The position numbers and the translations under genes were made by a program. The notes beneath the pieces are model-generated. The model searched no databases. It worked only from the letters and a program-made list of their open reading frames with translations, and was not told the origin of the DNA. 64,000 nucleotides of DNA from Lanius collurio (Eukaryota; Chordata; Aves; Passeriformes; Laniidae), in assembly GCA_020086605.1 (NCBI GenBank), contig JACBWW010000015.1, positions 25,672,483 to 25,736,482 of the forward strand. The letters run 5' to 3'. Position 1 is the first letter of the stretch. The number at the start of each line of letters is the position of its first letter. Shown piece after piece: positions 15,201 through 53,644 of the stretch.

Positions 15201-18200
15201 AACCACTTCTCACTTCCAAAAGACTCAGGTATGATTTTGACAAAGTCATTTTTCAGTGTAGAGCTACATTAAAAAAGAAAAGAAAAATATGAACATCTAG
15301 GATGTTCAGAAATCTTTTATCGTGTCTAATAATAAACCAAGGATTAGTTTTCTTGTCATTCAGCTAAATATTTTGAATTGCAAAAGTTTCTAGCTGAGTT
15401 TGTTTTCATGTAACTTTAAAAGCACAACCCTGACACTTTAGAATGCGCAGCAACTGACATTTTCTAACCTGACTGCAATAATTCTGGAAGACATTTTATA
15501 CTGTAATTAATTATAGCATGGGTCAAAACCAGAGAGACTCTAGAGAACCATCACTCCTCTAAATTCTCCGCTATGCACATGTAATTTTTTTACATTTTAC
15601 TTTTTTGTTGTTGTTTTGGTTGCTTGTTTGGTTTGGTTGCTTTTTTATTGCTTTAAGCAACTTGGGAAAAATGGCTGAATGCAAAAAAAGCTTTTAAAAG
15701 GTATCAATTCTTTTCAAATCTACAGAAAACCCTGTGCAGATGAGGTGCACAGTTGTGTATGTAACAGTAATCCCATCAAAGAGAATGAGGAGTTAAAAAG
15801 CCCTCTCTTACGCTCCCATGTAGGTGCAGCATCAGCGTGGGTGCTCATTTGTTTGTGTGCAAAGTAAAAAGGTTGGCTTTTTTTAGCTTTGCTGCTGTAA
15901 TACCTCTTCCTGAGGTGTCCCGCTTACAAAATGGATCCTTACATGACCTGGCTTTTAGTGTTGTCATTCTTGACCCCGCTTCCCATCACCTGCTACATCA
16001 GCTTGCTCTGGGCATTCAACAGCACTCCCATCCAAAAGCCACCTCCACAACTTTATGGATGTGTTATTGCTGCCAATCTTTGACAGAGAGGGTAAAAATC
16101 CACTAACTACAAACTCACACTCATCAGGAGTTCTGCACCGTCCCAGGGCTACATTCCTTGACTCGTGATGGCATAACCTTTCTTCTCTGGGCAATCTGGT
16201 TGAGTGCCTGTCCTCTGATTTGTACCTTTTTTTCTTAAAAAACCTGCAGAAGTTGAATACATTTTTTTCCTGATTTGGTCAGTCTTTTTTTGATCTGTTG
16301 GGTCTCCTGACCTGCTTCTTAAGCATTTGATTCATAATATTTCAGTGTCATGGTGAAAATACAATTAATTCTTTGTCCCTCAATGCTCTTCTGACCTGAC
16401 AAGATATCTTTTTTAAAGTCTACCTTTGCACAGCTGGAAAATATGAGCTTTGGGCAGAATTGGTTAGTCTGACCTACATGGAAAAAGGTGAGCCTAGAAG
16501 AGTAGCACCTTTCTTCATGGGAAAATTTACTATCAAAAAACCCCCAAATGCTCTGCAAAATCAGCTCATTTCACACATGTCCTCTGAGAGGGAAAAAACT
16601 CCTCGTAATTGTAAATTTTATATTTCTTTTTTTTCAAAGCCAAATGTCAGTTTTCATTCTGAAAAGCATGCCATTCTACATTCTATAATACTGTCTTTAT
16701 TTTTTAAATAATACTGGTGAAGCAGACAAAATTTCCACTATTTTCTTATTTTCTTTTTTGTCCATTTTACTGAACTCAGACAAGCCTTTTCAGAATTTTC
16801 TCTCATGGAGAATTTTCAAATAGTCAGTTTTAGGTCTTAACTAAAAGAGGTGAATGTCAAAACTCTCAGAAATCCTGTCCTCCTCAGAGCACTAGAGCAG
16901 TACATCACAGTAAATGATTATTTGGTCTCTCTTGCCTTTAAATATATTAGCCTATTAATTATAGGCCAGCTCATCATTTCTCCTTTAGACTTTAGCTTCA
17001 GTTTAATTTACTTTCCTTTTTTCTTGTTATTTAGGTCATCCCTCTAAAATGGACTAAAGATACTTTCTTCTTAATTGTTTCTGTGACAGCACTCCATCCA
17101 CTTTGAGTGTTAGTTGTTTTTCAGGAGAAATCGGGGGCTACCCCATATTTTTCTTGTTTGACATTTATTTCAGGCAGATTTCAGGCTAGCCATTCTTTGC
17201 ATTGTTGCCTGCACCTTGTAACATTATCGTCATCATCCTGGCAGACAGCTGTTTGTTGCCTTTACTGCATATCTAGGAGGTTAGGGTAGGTAGGATGGAG
17301 AGGTATCACAAGACAGCCATTTTAGGTGTCTCTCCCATAGCTGTCATCTGAATTTTATCAAAATATCTGTCAAAAGCGTATTCATATTTTCTTTTTCTCC
17401 TCTCCCCAGTGTCTTACATACATTTTAAGTCATGAACAGCCTCTGTTTGTACTCAAAAGAACCACATCTCAGTCCTGTACCAAAGCCAGCTGCAAGAGAG
17501 ATCATATCACACCCATAAGTATAGTGTTACTGTTGATAGCTCCTCACAATTTATAGAGCTCTCAATAAACTGTGGGCAAGAAAAAAATATCCTATCAAGA
17601 TCTGAAAATTTTCATTGCACTGGCTGGTTGCTTTGCAAGCCTGCAGCTCTCATCTGTCAGTTAAGGCAAGCTTGTCATACCACAGCAAAGTATTGGTCAC
17701 AAGCACTTTAAAACATTTGTGAAACCACCTGGCTTAGATATGAGAAGTTATGCTATTATTCAGCAACACTGCAATTTTACAGTGTTTGGGAGGCCAGCAG
17801 TGTGCTTAAACATTTCTGGTTACACTGGTAGAATTTCAGATCACTTAACTGTTGGTATAATCTTTACATAGCTTCACATAATCTGTTAGAACTAAATTAC
17901 ACCATGTCTTCCTGCTCATATTATTTTACTTCTAGCAATATGTCATTCCCATTCATTTAGAATCTCCAGAGTCTGCATCTGAGAGCTCTAATTAGGCATG
18001 TCTACAACTCTGGAAAATAGGTCTTCCATCTTATTTTCATGTTTGGATTCAATTTACTTTGTTGATACAATTGCTTTGTTCTGGGATCTATCAATGTTTT
18101 CTCTTTCAGGATAAGAGAGGAACTTGGATCAGTCACAAAAAGTAAATGACTGTGAGCATCTTGCATGAAATCTACAGTTTGCTTGGTGATTCTCATGTTT

Positions 18201-31984: not shown

Positions 31985-32122
31985 GGTTTGGTGGGGTTTT
32001 TTTTGGTTTTTTGTTTTTTTTTTTTTTTTTTTTTTGTTGTTTTGTTTTGGTTTTGGTTTTTTGTTGTTGTTGTTGTTGTTTTTTTGTTTGGGTTTTTTTT
32101 TTGGTATGTTTTTGGGTTGGGG
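31985..32122. repeat. G/T-only low-complexity tract
   Basis: About 140 bp with almost no A or C on the plus strand. It includes a run of over 20 T (about 32014-32035), (TTG)n triplets at 32061-32080 and scattered GGG or GGGG blocks. Phe/Trp/Val-rich frames on the plus strand and Lys/Asn/Gln-rich frames on the minus strand are artefacts of this composition. Confidence 0.92.
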
Positions 32123-33380: not shown

Positions 33381-33671
33381 TGTTGTAATGGGGAATCCTT
33401 ACAACAAGTATAAGACAGCGATGAACTTGGAAGGAAAGATGAAGCTATATGTTTTCAGATATTCAGAGATGATTTATTCCTCCAGCCCCATGGCTGGAGT
33501 TCCCAGGCAGACTCCAGTCACAGGACCCTGCTCTCTTCCCGGGCACGGGCACACAAACCAACAATCAGGAACAGGCATGGGGCACACGTGACATGGGAGC
33601 AGGGACAGGGACAGACCCGTACCCTGCAGGGTCTCTCCTCCCAGGACTTCAGGGGGAGAGGCACCTCCACA
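33381..33671 (-). mobile_element. solo LTR, same family as the 51-kb provirus
   Basis: Read on the minus strand this 291-bp element starts TGTGGAGGTGCC and ends CCCCATTACAACA. It aligns over its whole length with the two LTRs at 51,071 and 53,354. It carries the polyadenylation signal AATAAA (TTTATT at 33473-33478 on the plus strand). A 6-bp duplication with one CpG-type mismatch flanks it. A lone LTR with target duplication is the normal product of recombination between the two LTRs of a provirus. It differs from the provirus LTRs in several small indels and in the A-rich stretch after the poly-A signal, so it comes from a separate insertion. Confidence 0.92.
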
Positions 33672-51064: not shown

Positions 51065-51070
51065 CTAAAC
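51065..51070. repeat. target-site duplication, left copy (CTAAAC)
   Basis: The six bases directly before the 5' LTR match the six directly after the 3' LTR (53639-53644). Six-bp duplications are characteristic of alpha- and betaretrovirus-like (class II) integrases. Confidence 0.92.
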
Positions 51071-51355
51071 TGTGGAGGTGCCTCTCCCCTGAAGTCCTGG
51101 GGGAAGGGACCCTGCAGTGTATGGGTCTGTTCCTGTCCCTGTCCTCATGTCACATGTGCCCCATACCTGTTCCTGATTGATTGGTTTGGATGCCCAGGGC
51201 CGGGGAAGAGAGCGGGGTCCCATGACTGGAGTCTGCCTGGGAACTCCAACCATGTGGGCTGGAGGAATAAATCATCTCTGAACATCTAAAAAAATATCAC
51301 TTCATCTTTCCTTCCAAGTTCATCGCTGTCTTATACATGTTGTAAGGATTCCCCA
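51071..51355 (+). mobile_element. 5' LTR of the cold-shock provirus
   Basis: It starts TGTGGAGGTGCC and can be aligned with the 3' LTR up to GGATTCCCCA. The final eight bases (TTACAACA) present in the 3' LTR and in the 33.4-kb solo LTR are missing and replaced by TGGTGGGAATTC. AATAAA is at 51266-51271. There is no clear TATA box upstream of it. From AATAAA to the end the two LTRs are almost identical, while the first half has many substitutions and small indels, including altered CpG sites. Confidence 0.9.
51266..51271 (+). terminator. poly-A signal in the 5' LTR
   Basis: AATAAA in the context GGAGGAATAAATCATC, identical in all three LTRs of this family in the window. Confidence 0.7.
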
Positions 51356-51362
51356 TGGTGGG

Positions 51363-51385
51363 AATTCTCCAAATGGTGGAGAATT
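51363..51385 (+). repeat. 9-bp perfect hairpin where the primer-binding site should be
   Basis: AATTCTCCA (51363-51371) pairs with TGGAGAATT (51377-51385) around the 5-nt loop AATGG. This lies directly after the 5' LTR, the position of the tRNA primer-binding site. The TGG at 51356-51358 could be the start of such a site, but the following bases match no tRNA 3' end that I recognise. Confidence 0.6.
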
Positions 51386-51440
51386 GTGGACATTCAATCC
51401 CTGAAAACGATTTCTAAAGGTCCGGAGTACACCAATGTGA

Positions 51441-51499
51441 ATTGTGAGTAATTGAACTTTCTTATTGTCTTGTTTTTGGCTGTACTTTCTTACCAGATG
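51441..51499 (+). promoter_or_regulatory. splice-like signals before the gag ATG
   Basis: A strong donor-type sequence, ATT/GTGAGT (intron-side start 51444), and a strong acceptor-type sequence (pyrimidine-rich TTTTTGGCTGTACTTTCTTACCAG, ending at 51496) flank only 53 bp and end exactly at the gag-like ATG (51497). Fifty-three bp is at or below the usual lower limit of vertebrate introns. The acceptor may therefore have served a different, upstream donor, or the pair may be fortuitous. Confidence 0.35.
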
Positions 51500-51949
51500 G
51501 AAAAATCAGAGGAGTTGTGGCTAACTGAGACACAGAAAAAAATGTACTTGGAAGTGGAAGAAATACTAGCGAAACAAAATGCAAAACTGGACCCAGGACA
51601 TTTAGAACACTTTTTTAACTGGCTTTTCAAAAATTTCTTTTATGTCACTTGAGACTTAATTTTTGATGTTGGTTATCCTGTGACTAGAGGGGACAATTTT
51701 TGGAAAGAAACCGATGAGTTGATAATGATCAAGTCAAGAAGTGAAATGGTAGTAGAATTGATATTAGCACCTTTTGCAATTGAAGATGCTCTCATGAAGC
51801 ACATACTCGGTCCCAGTAACACAGAGGTGCCTGTGGCTGAGGTGCCTGCCGTGGAGGCGCCCAGCACTCCTAAAAGCAAAAGCCGTAGAGCAGACCCCAT
51901 CCCTGTATCGGAGTGCACTCCCGAGGGACAGTGGGTGAGAGAGCGATGA
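51497..51949 (+). pseudogene. gag matrix-like fragment with in-frame stops
   Basis: A single reading frame starts at ATG 51497 and shows a helical, charged N-terminus. It then has an aromatic-rich helix (motif FFNWLFKNFFYVT, about residues 39-51) and later a Trp followed by an acidic helix (FWKETDELI). This arrangement is similar to the matrix domain at the start of Gag in class II retroviruses, although the identity level is low by eye. The frame is broken by TGA at 51650-51652 and ends at TGA 51947-51949. A GC-rich Pro/Val/Glu-coding linker precedes the second stop. Matrix domains normally direct Gag to the membrane, but this copy cannot make a complete one. Confidence 0.6.
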
Positions 51950-52078
51950 CAAAGACTCTGGATGCGAGAGTACATTCCTAGGGGTCTCTGAGGTATTCTT
52001 ACAGTGAATAAAGAAGGACAACTAGTAGAAATAGCTGCTGAAAAACATAAAAAGCAAGCCGCTAGAGCAGAGGTGTGA
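51950..52078 (+). pseudogene. continuation of the gag-like frame, decayed
   Basis: The same frame continues after 51949 with a further TGA at 51989-51991. It then has a stop-free 28-codon piece rich in Lys, Glu and Ala (motif EIAAEKHKKQAARAE), ending at TGA 52076-52078. The charged, Ala-rich texture fits a coiled-coil or spacer region of Gag. No capsid major-homology region or zinc knuckle was found, so the rest of gag has been lost or replaced. Confidence 0.45.
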
Positions 52079-52660
52079 GCAGCGAGGGCAGCGGCGAAGG
52101 GCGGTGGCGGCCTAGGCGTGACCTGGTGATGGCCGCCCTGCACCGCATGGAAAGCAACGGTCTGAGCCTGAGCCTCACACCAAGAAAGGCAGTGGTGATT
52201 GTGGCAGTTGCTATGGTGACCGCAGTGAGCCACACTGAGCCAAGCCGGAGCGGCATGGGGGCGAGAAGGCAACCGCGCTAGTGCCCAGCAGCGACACGTC
52301 TGTAGCCGACAGCAGCAGCAGCGGTGGCAGCGCCGGCGGTACAAAGCAGTGCACACAAACACCTCACAGGGCACGGCTGCATGAATGCCCGGAAAGCGTG
52401 GAGCAGCAGTCACACGGAGCTCCAGAGGAGAAGCAAGCACAATGCCCAGCAGCGGTGCAGAAGTGGCTGAAGGCGGAGCAGCCGGCAGTGGCGGACTGCA
52501 GCAGCACAGCCAGACCAGACCCACGTGGCCCCACACGCGATCCCAAGGAGTCAGAACCCCATGGCAGGAATGCACTGGTGGCCCTGGTCCTGACGGTCCT
52601 GGCTGCAGCAGCTTCAGTGCGAGAGCAAGAAAAACTGAAAGTGAAAGCAAGATCAAAGGA
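52075..52660 (+). other. GC-rich Ala/Gly/Ser-coding segment joining gag to the cold-shock domain
   Basis: About 600 bp that is markedly richer in G and C than anything around it, with many CpG and GCN/AGC codons. Open frames switch here: one runs 52075-52281, another 52281-52724, and the cold-shock frame opens at 52385. The gag frame has at least four more stops between 52127 and 52198. Vertebrate Y-box proteins begin with a low-complexity Ala/Pro/Gly/Ser-rich region, and this segment could be its decayed counterpart. The start GAGCAGCGAGG at 52077 also resembles the first codons of YBX1, but that match is short. Origin inferred, not proven. Confidence 0.5.
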
Positions 52661-53230
52661 ACTCAGAAAAATGAAAAAGTTTTTGCAGCTAAGGTTTTTG
52701 GAACTGTCAAATGGTATAATGTAAAGAAAAATTATGGCTTCTTATTGAAAAATGATATAGGAGAAAGTATTTTTGTCCATAAATCTGCTATTGTGAAAAA
52801 TAACCCAGAAAGTGATGTTCCAAGCTTAGAAGAAGGAGAAAGAGTAGATTTTAAAATTGTGCAAGGAAGAAGGGGCCCTCAGGCAGCATGTGTTACAGGC
52901 CCTGGGGGTGCTCCTGTGCAAGGTAGTAGATATGCTGGACAATATCCCCATAATCCCTATCCTTTCCCCTATGCCACCTACCCCTTTTATCCCATGCCCC
53001 TTTATCCCCCATATATGCCCAGCCCAAATTTCCCTTTTTGGTTTCCCTCACAAAACCAGGCTTTTCCATTTGCCATCAACCCCTTTGCAATGCCGATGGG
53101 AGGGGATGAAAAGGAGGGAGGGAAGAAATTAATTGTAATTTTCCAAGATTCCAACAGGTACAGAAAGGAAAAAACCCTCTCCTCACTCAGTTTCCATCTG
53201 AAGCATGCTCAAGTCCTGTCTCCCTTCTGA
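52385..53230 (+). CDS. ERV-carried Y-box-type cold-shock-domain protein, intact ORF
   Basis: The ORF has 281 codons from ATG 52385. ATG 52442 (residue 20) has a better Kozak context (A at -3) and may be the real start, giving 262 residues. Residues 20-98 are Gly/Ala/Ser/Thr-rich, probably disordered. Residues 100-182 form a full cold-shock domain: GTVKWYNV (106-113), RNP1-like KKNYGFLL (114-121), RNP2-like IFVHKSAI (129-136), and the Y-box family ending VTGPGGAPVQGSRYA (170-184). That ending and the KNNP motif (138-141) place it with the vertebrate YBX family rather than LIN28 or CSDE1. Cold-shock domains bind single-stranded RNA or DNA. The RNP1 Gly of YBX proteins is Asn here (116). After the domain, the basic/aromatic islands of Y-box proteins are absent and replaced by a Tyr/Pro/Phe-rich tail (187-236) and a Lys-rich end. 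Expression is unknown. Transcription could start in the 5' LTR. Confidence 0.75.
   Translation: MPGKRGAAVTRSSRGEASTMPSSGAEVAEGGAAGSGGLQQHSQTRPTWPHTRSQGVRTPWQECTGGPGPDGPGCSSFSARARKTESESKIKGTQKNEKVFAAKVFGTVKWYNVKKNYGFLLKNDIGESIFVHKSAIVKNNPESDVPSLEEGERVDFKIVQGRRGPQAACVTGPGGAPVQGSRYAGQYPHNPYPFPYATYPFYPMPLYPPYMPSPNFPFWFPSQNQAFPFAINPFAMPMGGDEKEGGKKLIVIFQDSNRYRKEKTLSSLSFHLKHAQVLSPF
52691..52930 (+). other. cold-shock domain coding segment, A-rich codon use
   Basis: Within the ORF above, the domain itself is written with A/T-ending codons (AAA, GAA, ATA, TTT), unlike the GC-rich segment just upstream and unlike typical vertebrate YBX coding sequence as I know it. A-rich coding is common in several retrovirus groups. 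The contrast suggests that the domain spent a long time in a viral genome or came from an already A-rich source. Confidence 0.5.
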
Positions 53231-53336
53231 TACTCCAAAGAAAATCTGTTTGGACATTCGGGTACTCAAGATAGTGGCTTCCTTTCCTTTGAAATTGTTT
53301 TGTTGTTCATCCAACTGTTTCCAATGTTCTTTGTTT

Positions 53337-53350
53337 AAAAAGAAAGAGTG
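53337..53350 (+). promoter_or_regulatory. polypurine tract before the 3' LTR
   Basis: AAAAAGAAAGAG (53337-53348), followed by TGAAT and then the LTR start TGTGG at 53354. A purine run just upstream of the 3' LTR is the plus-strand primer site in retroviral reverse transcription. It supports the 53354 LTR boundary. Confidence 0.65.
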
Positions 53351-53353
53351 AAT

Positions 53354-53638
53354 TGTGGAGGTGCGAGAGGCACCATGAAGTCCTGGGGGGAGGGACCCTG
53401 CAGTGTACGGATCTGTCCCTGCTCCCATGTCACGTGTGCCCCATGCCTGTTCCTGATTGTTGGTTTGTGTGCCCGGGCCTGGGGAAGAGAGCAGGGTCCG
53501 ATGACTGGGTCTGCCTGGGAACTCCAGCCCTGCAGGCTGGAGGAATAAATCATCTCTGAACATCTAAAAAAATATCACTTCATCTTTCCTTCCAAGTTCA
53601 TTGCTGTCTTATACTTGTAAGGATTCCCCATTACAACA
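53354..53638 (+). mobile_element. 3' LTR of the cold-shock provirus
   Basis: This 285-bp LTR runs from TGTGGAGGTGC to TTACAACA, with AATAAA at 53544-53549. The TG...CA ends, the following CTAAAC duplication and the match of its last eight bases to the 33.4-kb solo LTR fix the boundary. Against the 5' LTR I count roughly twenty substitutions plus several small indels, almost all in the first half. The insertion is therefore not recent unless recombination has mixed LTR copies. Confidence 0.93.
53544..53549 (+). terminator. poly-A signal in the 3' LTR
   Basis: AATAAA in the same context as in the other LTRs of the family. It would end the proviral transcript that carries the cold-shock ORF. 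Confidence 0.7.
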
Positions 53639-53644
53639 CTAAAC
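53639..53644. repeat. target-site duplication, right copy (CTAAAC)
   Basis: Identical to 51065-51070, which shows that the whole 51071-53638 unit entered as one integration. Confidence 0.92.

What the first reader, a model, noticed from the sequence alone, without database searches (positions are those of the whole stretch)
51071..53638. Provirus that carries a Y-box-type cold-shock domain instead of pol and env
Seen: two LTRs, perfect 6-bp target duplications, a gag matrix-like start and, in the remaining internal space, a complete cold-shock domain with the YBX-family ending VTGPGGAPVQGSRYA. Known: cold-shock-domain proteins bind RNA and package mRNA, and YBX1 has been linked to retroviral RNA handling. 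Inference: a class II ERV lineage captured a host Y-box gene and kept it, perhaps to bind its own RNA or in place of nucleocapsid, since no zinc knuckle is visible. I know of no described bird ERV family with this cargo, but I could not search.
Basis: partly seen in the sequence, partly recalled or inferred. Interest (0 to 1): 0.88.

Follow-up and report, generated by a model that had tools for sequence, protein, structure and literature searches.

The report
Bird retrovirus family with Y-box gene
A bird genome holds at least 150 copies of a cold-shock (Y-box) RNA-binding domain inside short, defective retroviruses, joined in intact copies to a front end that resembles the viral matrix protein, and the same gene order occurs in a crow and a jay, so this is an old lineage of captured-gene viruses and not a one-off accident.

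Summary
Window 51071-53638 has two LTRs, a 6-bp duplication, a matrix-like N-terminal frame and a Y-box cold-shock domain (CSD); no pol, env or zinc knuckle was recognised in the pieces scanned. It belongs to a large family: in its own genome 150 of 150 scored matches carry CSD plus tail, and 45 of 50 fetched copies (window included) have paired LTRs around a compact element of about 2.2-2.6 kb. Seven copies keep one open frame, matrix-like + linker + CSD + Pro/aromatic tail. Aphelocoma coerulescens and Corvus moneduloides proteins have the same order. The family CSDs lie outside host YBX1/2/3, against a recent nested retrocopy. Pairwise dN/dS is below 1 in matrix-like domain and CSD. Modules were swapped between lineages. 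Most likely a non-autonomous class II-type ERV family in which a captured Y-box domain took nucleocapsid's place and binds element RNA for helper-driven replication. The lineage is well supported; the RNA-adaptor function is inferred and no helper was identified. Host-gene capture by ERVs is known, so this is a new variant.

The parts
51065..51070 (+). 5' copy of the 6-bp target-site duplication CTAAAC
51071..51371 (+). 5' LTR (end approximate: the last bases differ from the 3' LTR); CTGATTGATTGG Y-box-like site; AATAAA followed by an R-U5 stretch with four CATC
51374..51391 (+). primer-binding-site-like TGGTGGAG..., two bases after the LTR; the priming tRNA was not identified
   Evidence: the LTR-end/PBS 19-mer of low-divergence copies occurs 180 times in the genome, reversed control 0
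51497..51652 (+). matrix-like (MA type A) coding piece, ATG 51497, closed by TGA 51650-51652 in this copy
   Evidence: fold of a relative
51653..51949 (+). second part of the matrix-like domain and start of the linker, next open piece, closed by TGA 51947-51949
51950..52672 (+). GC-rich linker, frame broken in this copy, continuous in intact relatives
52385..53230 (+). open reading frame of 281 aa that holds the linker end, CSD and tail
52673..52936 (+). Y-box cold-shock domain
52937..53104 (+). Pro/aromatic-rich tail (FPFYP ... MPMGG), shared with copies in the same genome and with the jay protein, not seen in the YBX proteins read here
53105..53353 (+). 3' region ending in a purine-rich run before the 3' LTR (polypurine-tract-like)
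   Evidence: family-wide
53354..53638 (+). 3' LTR, TGTGGAGG...TTACAACA
53639..53644 (+). 3' copy of the target-site duplication CTAAAC

Best explanation
The window holds one dead copy of an old, abundant, non-autonomous class II-type endogenous retrovirus family, probably of songbirds. A Y-box mRNA was captured behind a Gag matrix-like domain, and capsid, nucleocapsid, protease, pol and env were lost. The single product is a fusion: matrix-like helical domain, disordered linker, Y-box CSD, Pro/aromatic tail. It probably works as an RNA adaptor that stands in for nucleocapsid: the CSD coats or selects the element's own transcript while the matrix-like domain brings it to membranes or assembly sites where a helper class II ERV supplies capsid, reverse transcriptase and integrase. 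Shown: architecture, many copies, LTRs, the same order in corvids, dN/dS below 1 in MA and CSD, RNA-stacking residues present, module exchange. Inferred: helper dependence, RNA binding, particle entry, role in packaging.
For: LTR/TSD anatomy. 150 of 150 scored matches in the own genome (1825 first-look candidates), 82% or more identity over about 144 aa. 45 of 50 fetched copies have paired LTRs. 30 of 30 fetched copies picked by their noncoding 3' region (of 40 scored; the window copy is one) carry the CSD. Seven copies keep a 502-522 aa frame from an ATG. Jay protein of 437 aa and crow proteins of 421 and 440 aa (the latter a cluster of 24) have the same order. MA dN/dS 0.32 (30 loci) and 0.34 (14 loci) in copies picked by CSD score; CSD 0.39 in 29 copies picked by noncoding DNA, falling as dS rises. 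W65, F74, F85, H87 kept in 26, 26, 29 and 28 of 29 DNA-picked copies, the four residues that stack on RNA bases in YB-1 (PMC7226217, passages). MA model: top two PDB matches are Rous sarcoma virus matrix, prob 0.82 and 0.80. MA and CSD trees conflict, as expected if RNAs are co-packaged and recombine. CATC, the preferred YB-1 CSD motif, is clustered in R-U5.
Against: No helper sharing the LTR was found: 0 of 100 listed LTR/PBS junctions (of 180) has one of 43 RVT_thumb hits on the same contigs 1.5-8 kb downstream; one junction on C6 has one 10.0 kb downstream and was not followed. Two gag-pol upstream stretches gave no LTR or MA match beyond about 20 bases or 15 residues. MA homology is not seen by sequence and the fold match has E 1.2. 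The CATC cluster is weak (4 against 1.40 in shuffles, P 0.03; 3' LTR 3 against 1.07, P 0.07), was chosen after seeing the sequence, and the copies are related. YB-1 prefers CAUC only 2-3 fold (PMC7226217). W65 and F74 are not conserved above the CSD average among DNA-picked copies. Closest pairs approach dN/dS 0.8-1 or more, as dead copies do. No expression or binding data.
Confidence: 0.5

Rival explanations
1. Passive cargo: the element spreads by cis signals (LTR, PBS, packaging site) in a helper's particles, and the fusion frame is only a leftover of a transduction event with no role.
For: In DNA-picked copies 20 of 29 have a stop or frameshift in CSD+tail; 17 of 44 loci have an in-frame stop in the MA frame (11 of 30 and 6 of 14). 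Closest pairs show dN/dS near 1. No function is shown.
Against: Pairwise dN/dS is below 1 overall in MA and CSD and falls with distance; net MA divergence between two sub-families is dN 0.0034 against dS 0.0744. The order MA-CSD-tail is kept in corvids and in more than one deep lineage of this genome.
Confidence: 0.25
2. Self-activating transcription factor: the fusion acts on its own LTR through the Y-box (inverted CCAAT) site in U3, raising germline transcription.
For: CTGATTGG is present in 67 of 94 LTRs. That chicken Y-box proteins act on the Rous sarcoma virus LTR is recalled, not looked up.
Against: CCAAT boxes are ordinary promoter elements bound by NF-Y (recalled). A matrix-like front end is unexpected for a nuclear factor. 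Neither LTR of the window copy has an exact CTGATTGG (5' CTGATTGATTGG, 3' CTGATTGTTGG).
Confidence: 0.12
3. Interference or host co-option: the MA-CSD protein is dominant-negative against other ERVs and was kept because hosts benefit.
For: Intact frames persist in seven copies; dN/dS below 1; the genome still has pol genes with long open frames.
Against: The signal comes from a mobile, multi-copy family; no orthologous locus in another species was looked at.
Confidence: 0.08
4. A recent YBX retrocopy that landed in an ordinary provirus.
For: The CSD is intronless.
Against: Copies in at least 150 places carry it, at the same place between LTRs in the fetched ones; CSD outside the YBX1/2/3 rows; same fusion in corvids.
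Confidence: 0.02

Closest known systems
Crocodilian ERVs with captured host mRNAs: KIT-ligand, and nectin3 in CrocERV31 (PMC4299795; search listing and passages seen)
   Same: Host mRNA captured by an ERV, intact ORFs with purifying selection, several related copies, nectin3 capture older than a species split (as stated in the passages).
   Different: There KIT-ligand was added without loss of an ERV domain and nectin3 came at the expense of env. Here the cargo is an RNA-binding domain fused in frame to a matrix-like domain, the only gene of a roughly 2.5-kb element with very many copies.
Acute transforming avian retroviruses with Gag-onc fusions (recalled)
   Same: Defective genome, Gag N-terminus fused in frame to a captured host coding sequence, presumed helper dependence.
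   Different: Those are single isolates; this is an endogenous, diversified lineage found in several birds, with a nucleic-acid-binding cargo.
Host Y-box proteins YBX1, YBX2, YBX3
   Same: CSD with the four RNA-stacking residues and the VTGPGG.PV.GS.YA ending.
   Different: No Ala/Pro N-terminal domain or alternating basic/acidic C-terminal domain; matrix-like front and Pro/aromatic tail instead; CSD 51-59% identical to the YBX and invertebrate Y-box rows.
Non-autonomous ERVs such as mouse ETn (recalled)
   Same: High copy number, LTRs and cis signals, no pol.
   Different: ETn has no comparable coding frame (recalled); this family keeps a long one in some copies.

Membership tests
Endogenous retrovirus, class II type | paired LTRs with TG...CA ends | tested here: met
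   window; 45 of 50 copies with an LTR pair
Endogenous retrovirus, class II type | 6-bp target-site duplication | tested here: met
   window CTAAAC; 14 of 45 paired copies gave an exact 6-bp match in a local scan, 2 of them with odd ends; many loci were cut at the 5' side and could not be tested
Endogenous retrovirus, class II type | primer-binding site matching a tRNA 3' end | tested here: inconclusive
   TGG two bases after the LTR; tRNA not identified
Endogenous retrovirus, class II type | Gag matrix domain | tested here: inconclusive
   predicted five-helix fold; top two of 350,542 PDB chains are RSV matrix, prob 0.82/0.80 but E 1.2/1.9; no viral-library match; no Pfam, PDB-sequence or hhalign support
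Endogenous retrovirus, class II type | capsid, zinc-knuckle nucleocapsid, pol, env | tested here: not met
   not found in Pfam scans of three window pieces, P0001, P0117 and the 26 rows of A5; LTRs lie within about 1.5 kb of the CSD. Filed as a non-autonomous derivative, not as a complete ERV
Y-box protein family | cold-shock domain | tested here: met
   Pfam 3.3e-19; PDB YBX1 3e-30
Y-box protein family | Ala/Pro-rich N-terminus and alternating basic/acidic C-terminal repeats | tested here: not met
   sequences and alignments: linker and Pro/aromatic tail instead
Y-box protein family | groups with one host YBX paralogue in a tree | tested here: not met
   family CSDs lie outside YBX1/2/3; source paralogue unresolved
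ERV with captured host gene | intronless host-derived domain between LTRs, shared by several copies | tested here: met
ERV with captured host gene | mobilisation in trans by a helper | not testable with these tools
   pol genes with long open frames exist in the genome; no LTR-sharing helper found

The most novel reading that the evidence does not exclude
A retroviral lineage whose sole gene is a Gag-type protein in which nucleocapsid (and capsid) gave way to a host Y-box RNA-packaging domain: a satellite retrovirus that makes its own RNA adaptor, rides in helper particles, and has persisted, recombined and diversified since before this bird and the corvids parted.
Probability: 0.35. Interest if true: 0.9.

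Novelty: new variant of a known kind. Interest (0 to 1): 0.78.

Why it matters
Retroviral nucleocapsid is normally a basic zinc-knuckle domain. A lineage that kept a host RNA-binding domain next to a matrix-like domain, and apparently nothing else, is a natural test of what is minimally needed to get an RNA into retroviral particles, and of whether a cellular mRNA-packaging domain can do nucleocapsid's job. It is also an abundant and long-kept host-gene capture, and proteins of this family sit in crow and jay protein sets as 'uncharacterized protein', where they could mislead Y-box gene annotation. The nine literature searches made here (the last two on YB-1 itself) listed no title or abstract start that describes a bird ERV with a cold-shock domain; the library is open-access PMC only.

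Tried and rejected
Recent nested retrocopy: rejected. Fuller relative with pol: a CSD hit on contig C8 lies 4.5 kb upstream of an RVT_thumb hit on the same strand, but in L091 its own tail, 3' region and LTR follow within about 700 bases, so the pol belongs to a neighbour. Two further near pairs were not followed: a junction on C6 with a thumb hit 10.0 kb downstream, and a thumb hit on C5 about 7 kb from a CSD on the other strand. Shared LTR or MA with gag-pol ERVs: nothing convincing in two readable upstream stretches, L089 and L090 (best LTR hit 19 bases, E 0.02; best MA hit 15 residues, E 0.07); a third, L088, reads largely N. MA profile against those two gag starts: not above 60 shuffled decoys; the two gag starts themselves match each other at only 14.6% probability, so the test is weak. 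Viral contig scan: four loci with a CSD-like match, none followed up. BFVD fold search of the MA model: nothing. The first dN/dS run on DNA-picked copies was spoiled by frame jumps and was replaced by the codon projection. The protein-picked copies are biased to low dN because they were ranked by protein score; the DNA-picked set and the MA set are given for that reason. Source paralogue: goose YBX2 (P0133) shares I, Q and P in DIVQGVKGPEAA with several family CSDs, a hint at YBX2, but the tree that held it does not support it.
Full report
WHAT IS THERE. The window element runs 51071-53638 between two copies of CTAAAC (51065-51070 and 53639-53644). The LTRs (about 301 and 285 bp) align with K2P 0.066 over 271 bases (the six last bases of the 3' LTR were left out). 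After the 5' LTR come TGGTGGAG..., ATG 51497 and a matrix-like frame closed by TGA at 51650-51652, a second open piece to 51949, a GC-rich linker, and ORF 52385-53230 with the cold-shock domain (Pfam 3.3e-19; YBX1 CSD 3e-30) and a Pro/aromatic tail. No other retroviral domain was recognised by Pfam in three window pieces (the stretch 51950-52384 was not scanned itself), in the jay and crow proteins or in the 26 rows of the matrix alignment.

IT IS A FAMILY. The window lies in a 1.097-Gb genome. A search with CSD plus tail gave 150 matches, all that were scored, from 1825 first-look candidates, at 82-100% identity over about 144 aa, the window's own included. A search with the noncoding 3' region gave 40 of 40 scored from 1075 candidates, all at 93% or more. 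The exact 19-base LTR-end/PBS junction of low-divergence copies occurs 180 times, its reversed control 0 times; 25 of the 100 junctions listed have a CSD or 3'-region hit from the capped lists behind them, the other 75 cannot be judged from those lists. True copy number is at least 150 and probably of the order of a thousand (inference). Of 50 copies chosen by protein score (window included), 45 have LTRs on both sides of the CSD within about 1.5 kb; spans in the paired copies were 2157-2606 bases, some cut short by the fetched stretch. Of 30 fetched copies chosen by the 3' region (window included), 30 carry the CSD. LTR-LTR K2P ranged 0.020-0.154, so integrations spread over a long time; no rate was calibrated here.

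THE GENE. Seven copies (L010, L031-L036) keep one frame of 502-522 aa from an ATG. In one search, 10 of 150 rows have an open frame of 450 aa or more; three of those (L037-L039) start inside the matrix-like part. The order is: matrix-like domain, linker, CSD, tail ending near MPMGG. Of the 50 copies, 14 gave a type A and 30 a type B matrix-like match, none both. The jay protein P0001 (Aphelocoma coerulescens, 437 aa) and crow proteins P0117 (421 aa) and P0119 (440 aa, a cluster of 24; all Corvus moneduloides) start matrix-like and carry the CSD; P0001 and P0119 have the tail, P0117 ends in a diverged one. P0001 matches the window CSD and tail at 50% over 153 aa, beyond the CSD itself.

ORIGIN OF THE CSD. 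In two trees the family CSDs lie outside vertebrate and invertebrate Y-box proteins, which form one group (95/97, 100/98). In one search (before L085-L087 were added) the 18 family rows are one group at 97/87; they fall in two groups, with P0128 and P0132 (Lamprotornis superbus) nearer to YBX and modest support, so a single capture is likely but not proven. The roots are midpoint roots, 92-93 columns are few, and no YBX gene of this species was included. Several deep CSD lineages coexist in this genome: L086 pairs MA type A with a CSD and tail resembling the jay's, L085 pairs MA type B with an intermediate CSD. Goose YBX2 shares part of a family stretch, DIVQG.KGP, a hint only.

MODULE EXCHANGE. 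MA types A and B each unite corvid and own sequences (100/100 each), yet crow P0118 (MA type B) has a CSD that groups with those of MA type A proteins (99/96, 100/99), and in this genome both MA types carry the same CSD group. Such swaps are expected when two RNAs are co-packaged and reverse transcription switches templates (inference). Horizontal spread between species is not excluded.

CONSTRAINT. In copies picked by CSD score, the MA region, not itself selected, has pairwise dN/dS 0.32 (type B, 30 loci, 386 pairs) and 0.34 (type A, 14 loci, 89 pairs), falling with dS; the closest pairs reach 0.65 and 1.06. Net divergence between two type-B sub-families is dN 0.0034 against dS 0.0744. In 29 copies picked by noncoding DNA (one of 30 dropped for too few aligned codons), dN/dS is 0.39 in the CSD and 0.63 in the tail, from 0.82 and 1.01 in the bin of near pairs to 0.33 and 0.27 in the most distant bin; 20 of 29 have a stop or frameshift, as expected of dead insertions. 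For protein-picked copies the figures are 0.29 and 0.53 and are biased downward. Pairs are not independent, and no likelihood test was run. W65, F74, F85 and H87, which stack on RNA bases in YB-1 (PMC7226217, passages), are kept in 26, 26, 29 and 28 of 29 DNA-picked copies; W65 and F74 are at the CSD average, F85 and H87 above it.

IS THE FRONT END MATRIX? The AlphaFold2 model of a matrix-only relative (P0131, 26-row alignment) is a five-helix bundle with block pLDDT 64-87 over residues 1-110. Foldseek's two best PDB chains are Rous sarcoma virus matrix (prob 0.82 and 0.80, target TM 0.67 and 0.66), a third ranks 22; E-values are 1.2, 1.9 and 9.2, none significant, and the viral library gave nothing. 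The whole-frame model is poor (mean pLDDT 51) and its 13 matches with E up to 0.001 are Y-box CSDs. Sequence methods give nothing, and a profile comparison with two gag starts of the same genome is not above decoys. I call it matrix-like, probable by position and fold.

HOW IT MAY WORK. The element lacks the enzymes to copy itself, so its copies were presumably made by another ERV; the genome has pol genes with the RVT_thumb domain (a class II marker, recalled), some in frames over 1000 aa. What is kept is a membrane/assembly-type domain and an RNA-binding domain, joined. The simplest role is an RNA adaptor for the element's own transcript. YB-1 binds a stem-loop in the HIV-1 packaging signal and stabilises viral RNA (PMC11768693, passage of a review), so a Y-box domain can act on retroviral RNA. 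The R-U5 region carries on average 3.1 CATC in about 99 bases in 88 of 94 LTRs that could be measured; the window's 5' LTR has 4 against 1.40 in shuffles (P 0.03), its 3' LTR 3 against 1.07 (P 0.07), and the seven other element regions together have 4. This is suggestive only: the motif was picked after looking, the copies are related, and YB-1's preference is 2-3 fold. The LTR also holds CTGATTGG in 67 of 94 cases, the basis of the self-activation rival.

HELPER. Of 100 listed junctions (of 180), none has any of 43 RVT_thumb hits on the same contigs 1.5-8 kb downstream; one has a hit 10.0 kb downstream, not followed (thumb hits are 150 scored of 253 candidates). Two gag-pol upstream stretches have no convincing LTR or MA similarity. 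A suggestive CSD-pol neighbourhood on C8 turned out to be two adjacent elements. The own-genome MA search did not complete. So the helper is unidentified.

KNOWN OR NEW. Captured host mRNAs in ERVs are known: crocodilian KIT-ligand and nectin3 (PMC4299795, listing and passages); Gag-onc fusions are recalled. Nine literature searches listed no bird ERV with a cold-shock domain. I rate it a new variant of a known kind: new in cargo (an RNA-packaging type domain), in being the sole gene fused to a matrix-like domain, and in abundance and persistence.

Noticed in passing
window 33387-33671 (-): Solo LTR of the same family, about 90% identical to the element's LTRs.
   Followed up: partly
L010: An intact-frame copy is inserted inside the CSD of another copy of the family: CSD and tail fragments flank it.
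   Followed up: partly
G000 C900:1975-2406 (-) and 16750-17181 (+); C7:126338 and C298:11582: Pairs of CSD copies with identical scores, in the first case in opposite orientation on one contig: duplication or assembly artefact.
   Followed up: no
P0128 and P0132 (Lamprotornis superbus): Proteins with a CSD nearer to YBX and no matrix-like start recognisable; possible early or separate captures. P0128 finds 117 scored matches in the window genome.
   Followed up: partly
window 31996-32114: T/G-rich tandem repeat array (TTTTTG, TTTTGG units).
   Followed up: no
L051-L054 (IMG/VR contigs): Viral contigs that encode cold-shock-like domains, 29-53% identical in the best segment, matching mainly the CSD part of the query.
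   Followed up: no
G000 C1290, C15:25862575, C1862 and others: Several pol genes with RVT_thumb in open frames over 1000 aa, probably young ERVs; one upstream stretch reads largely N (L088).
   Followed up: no
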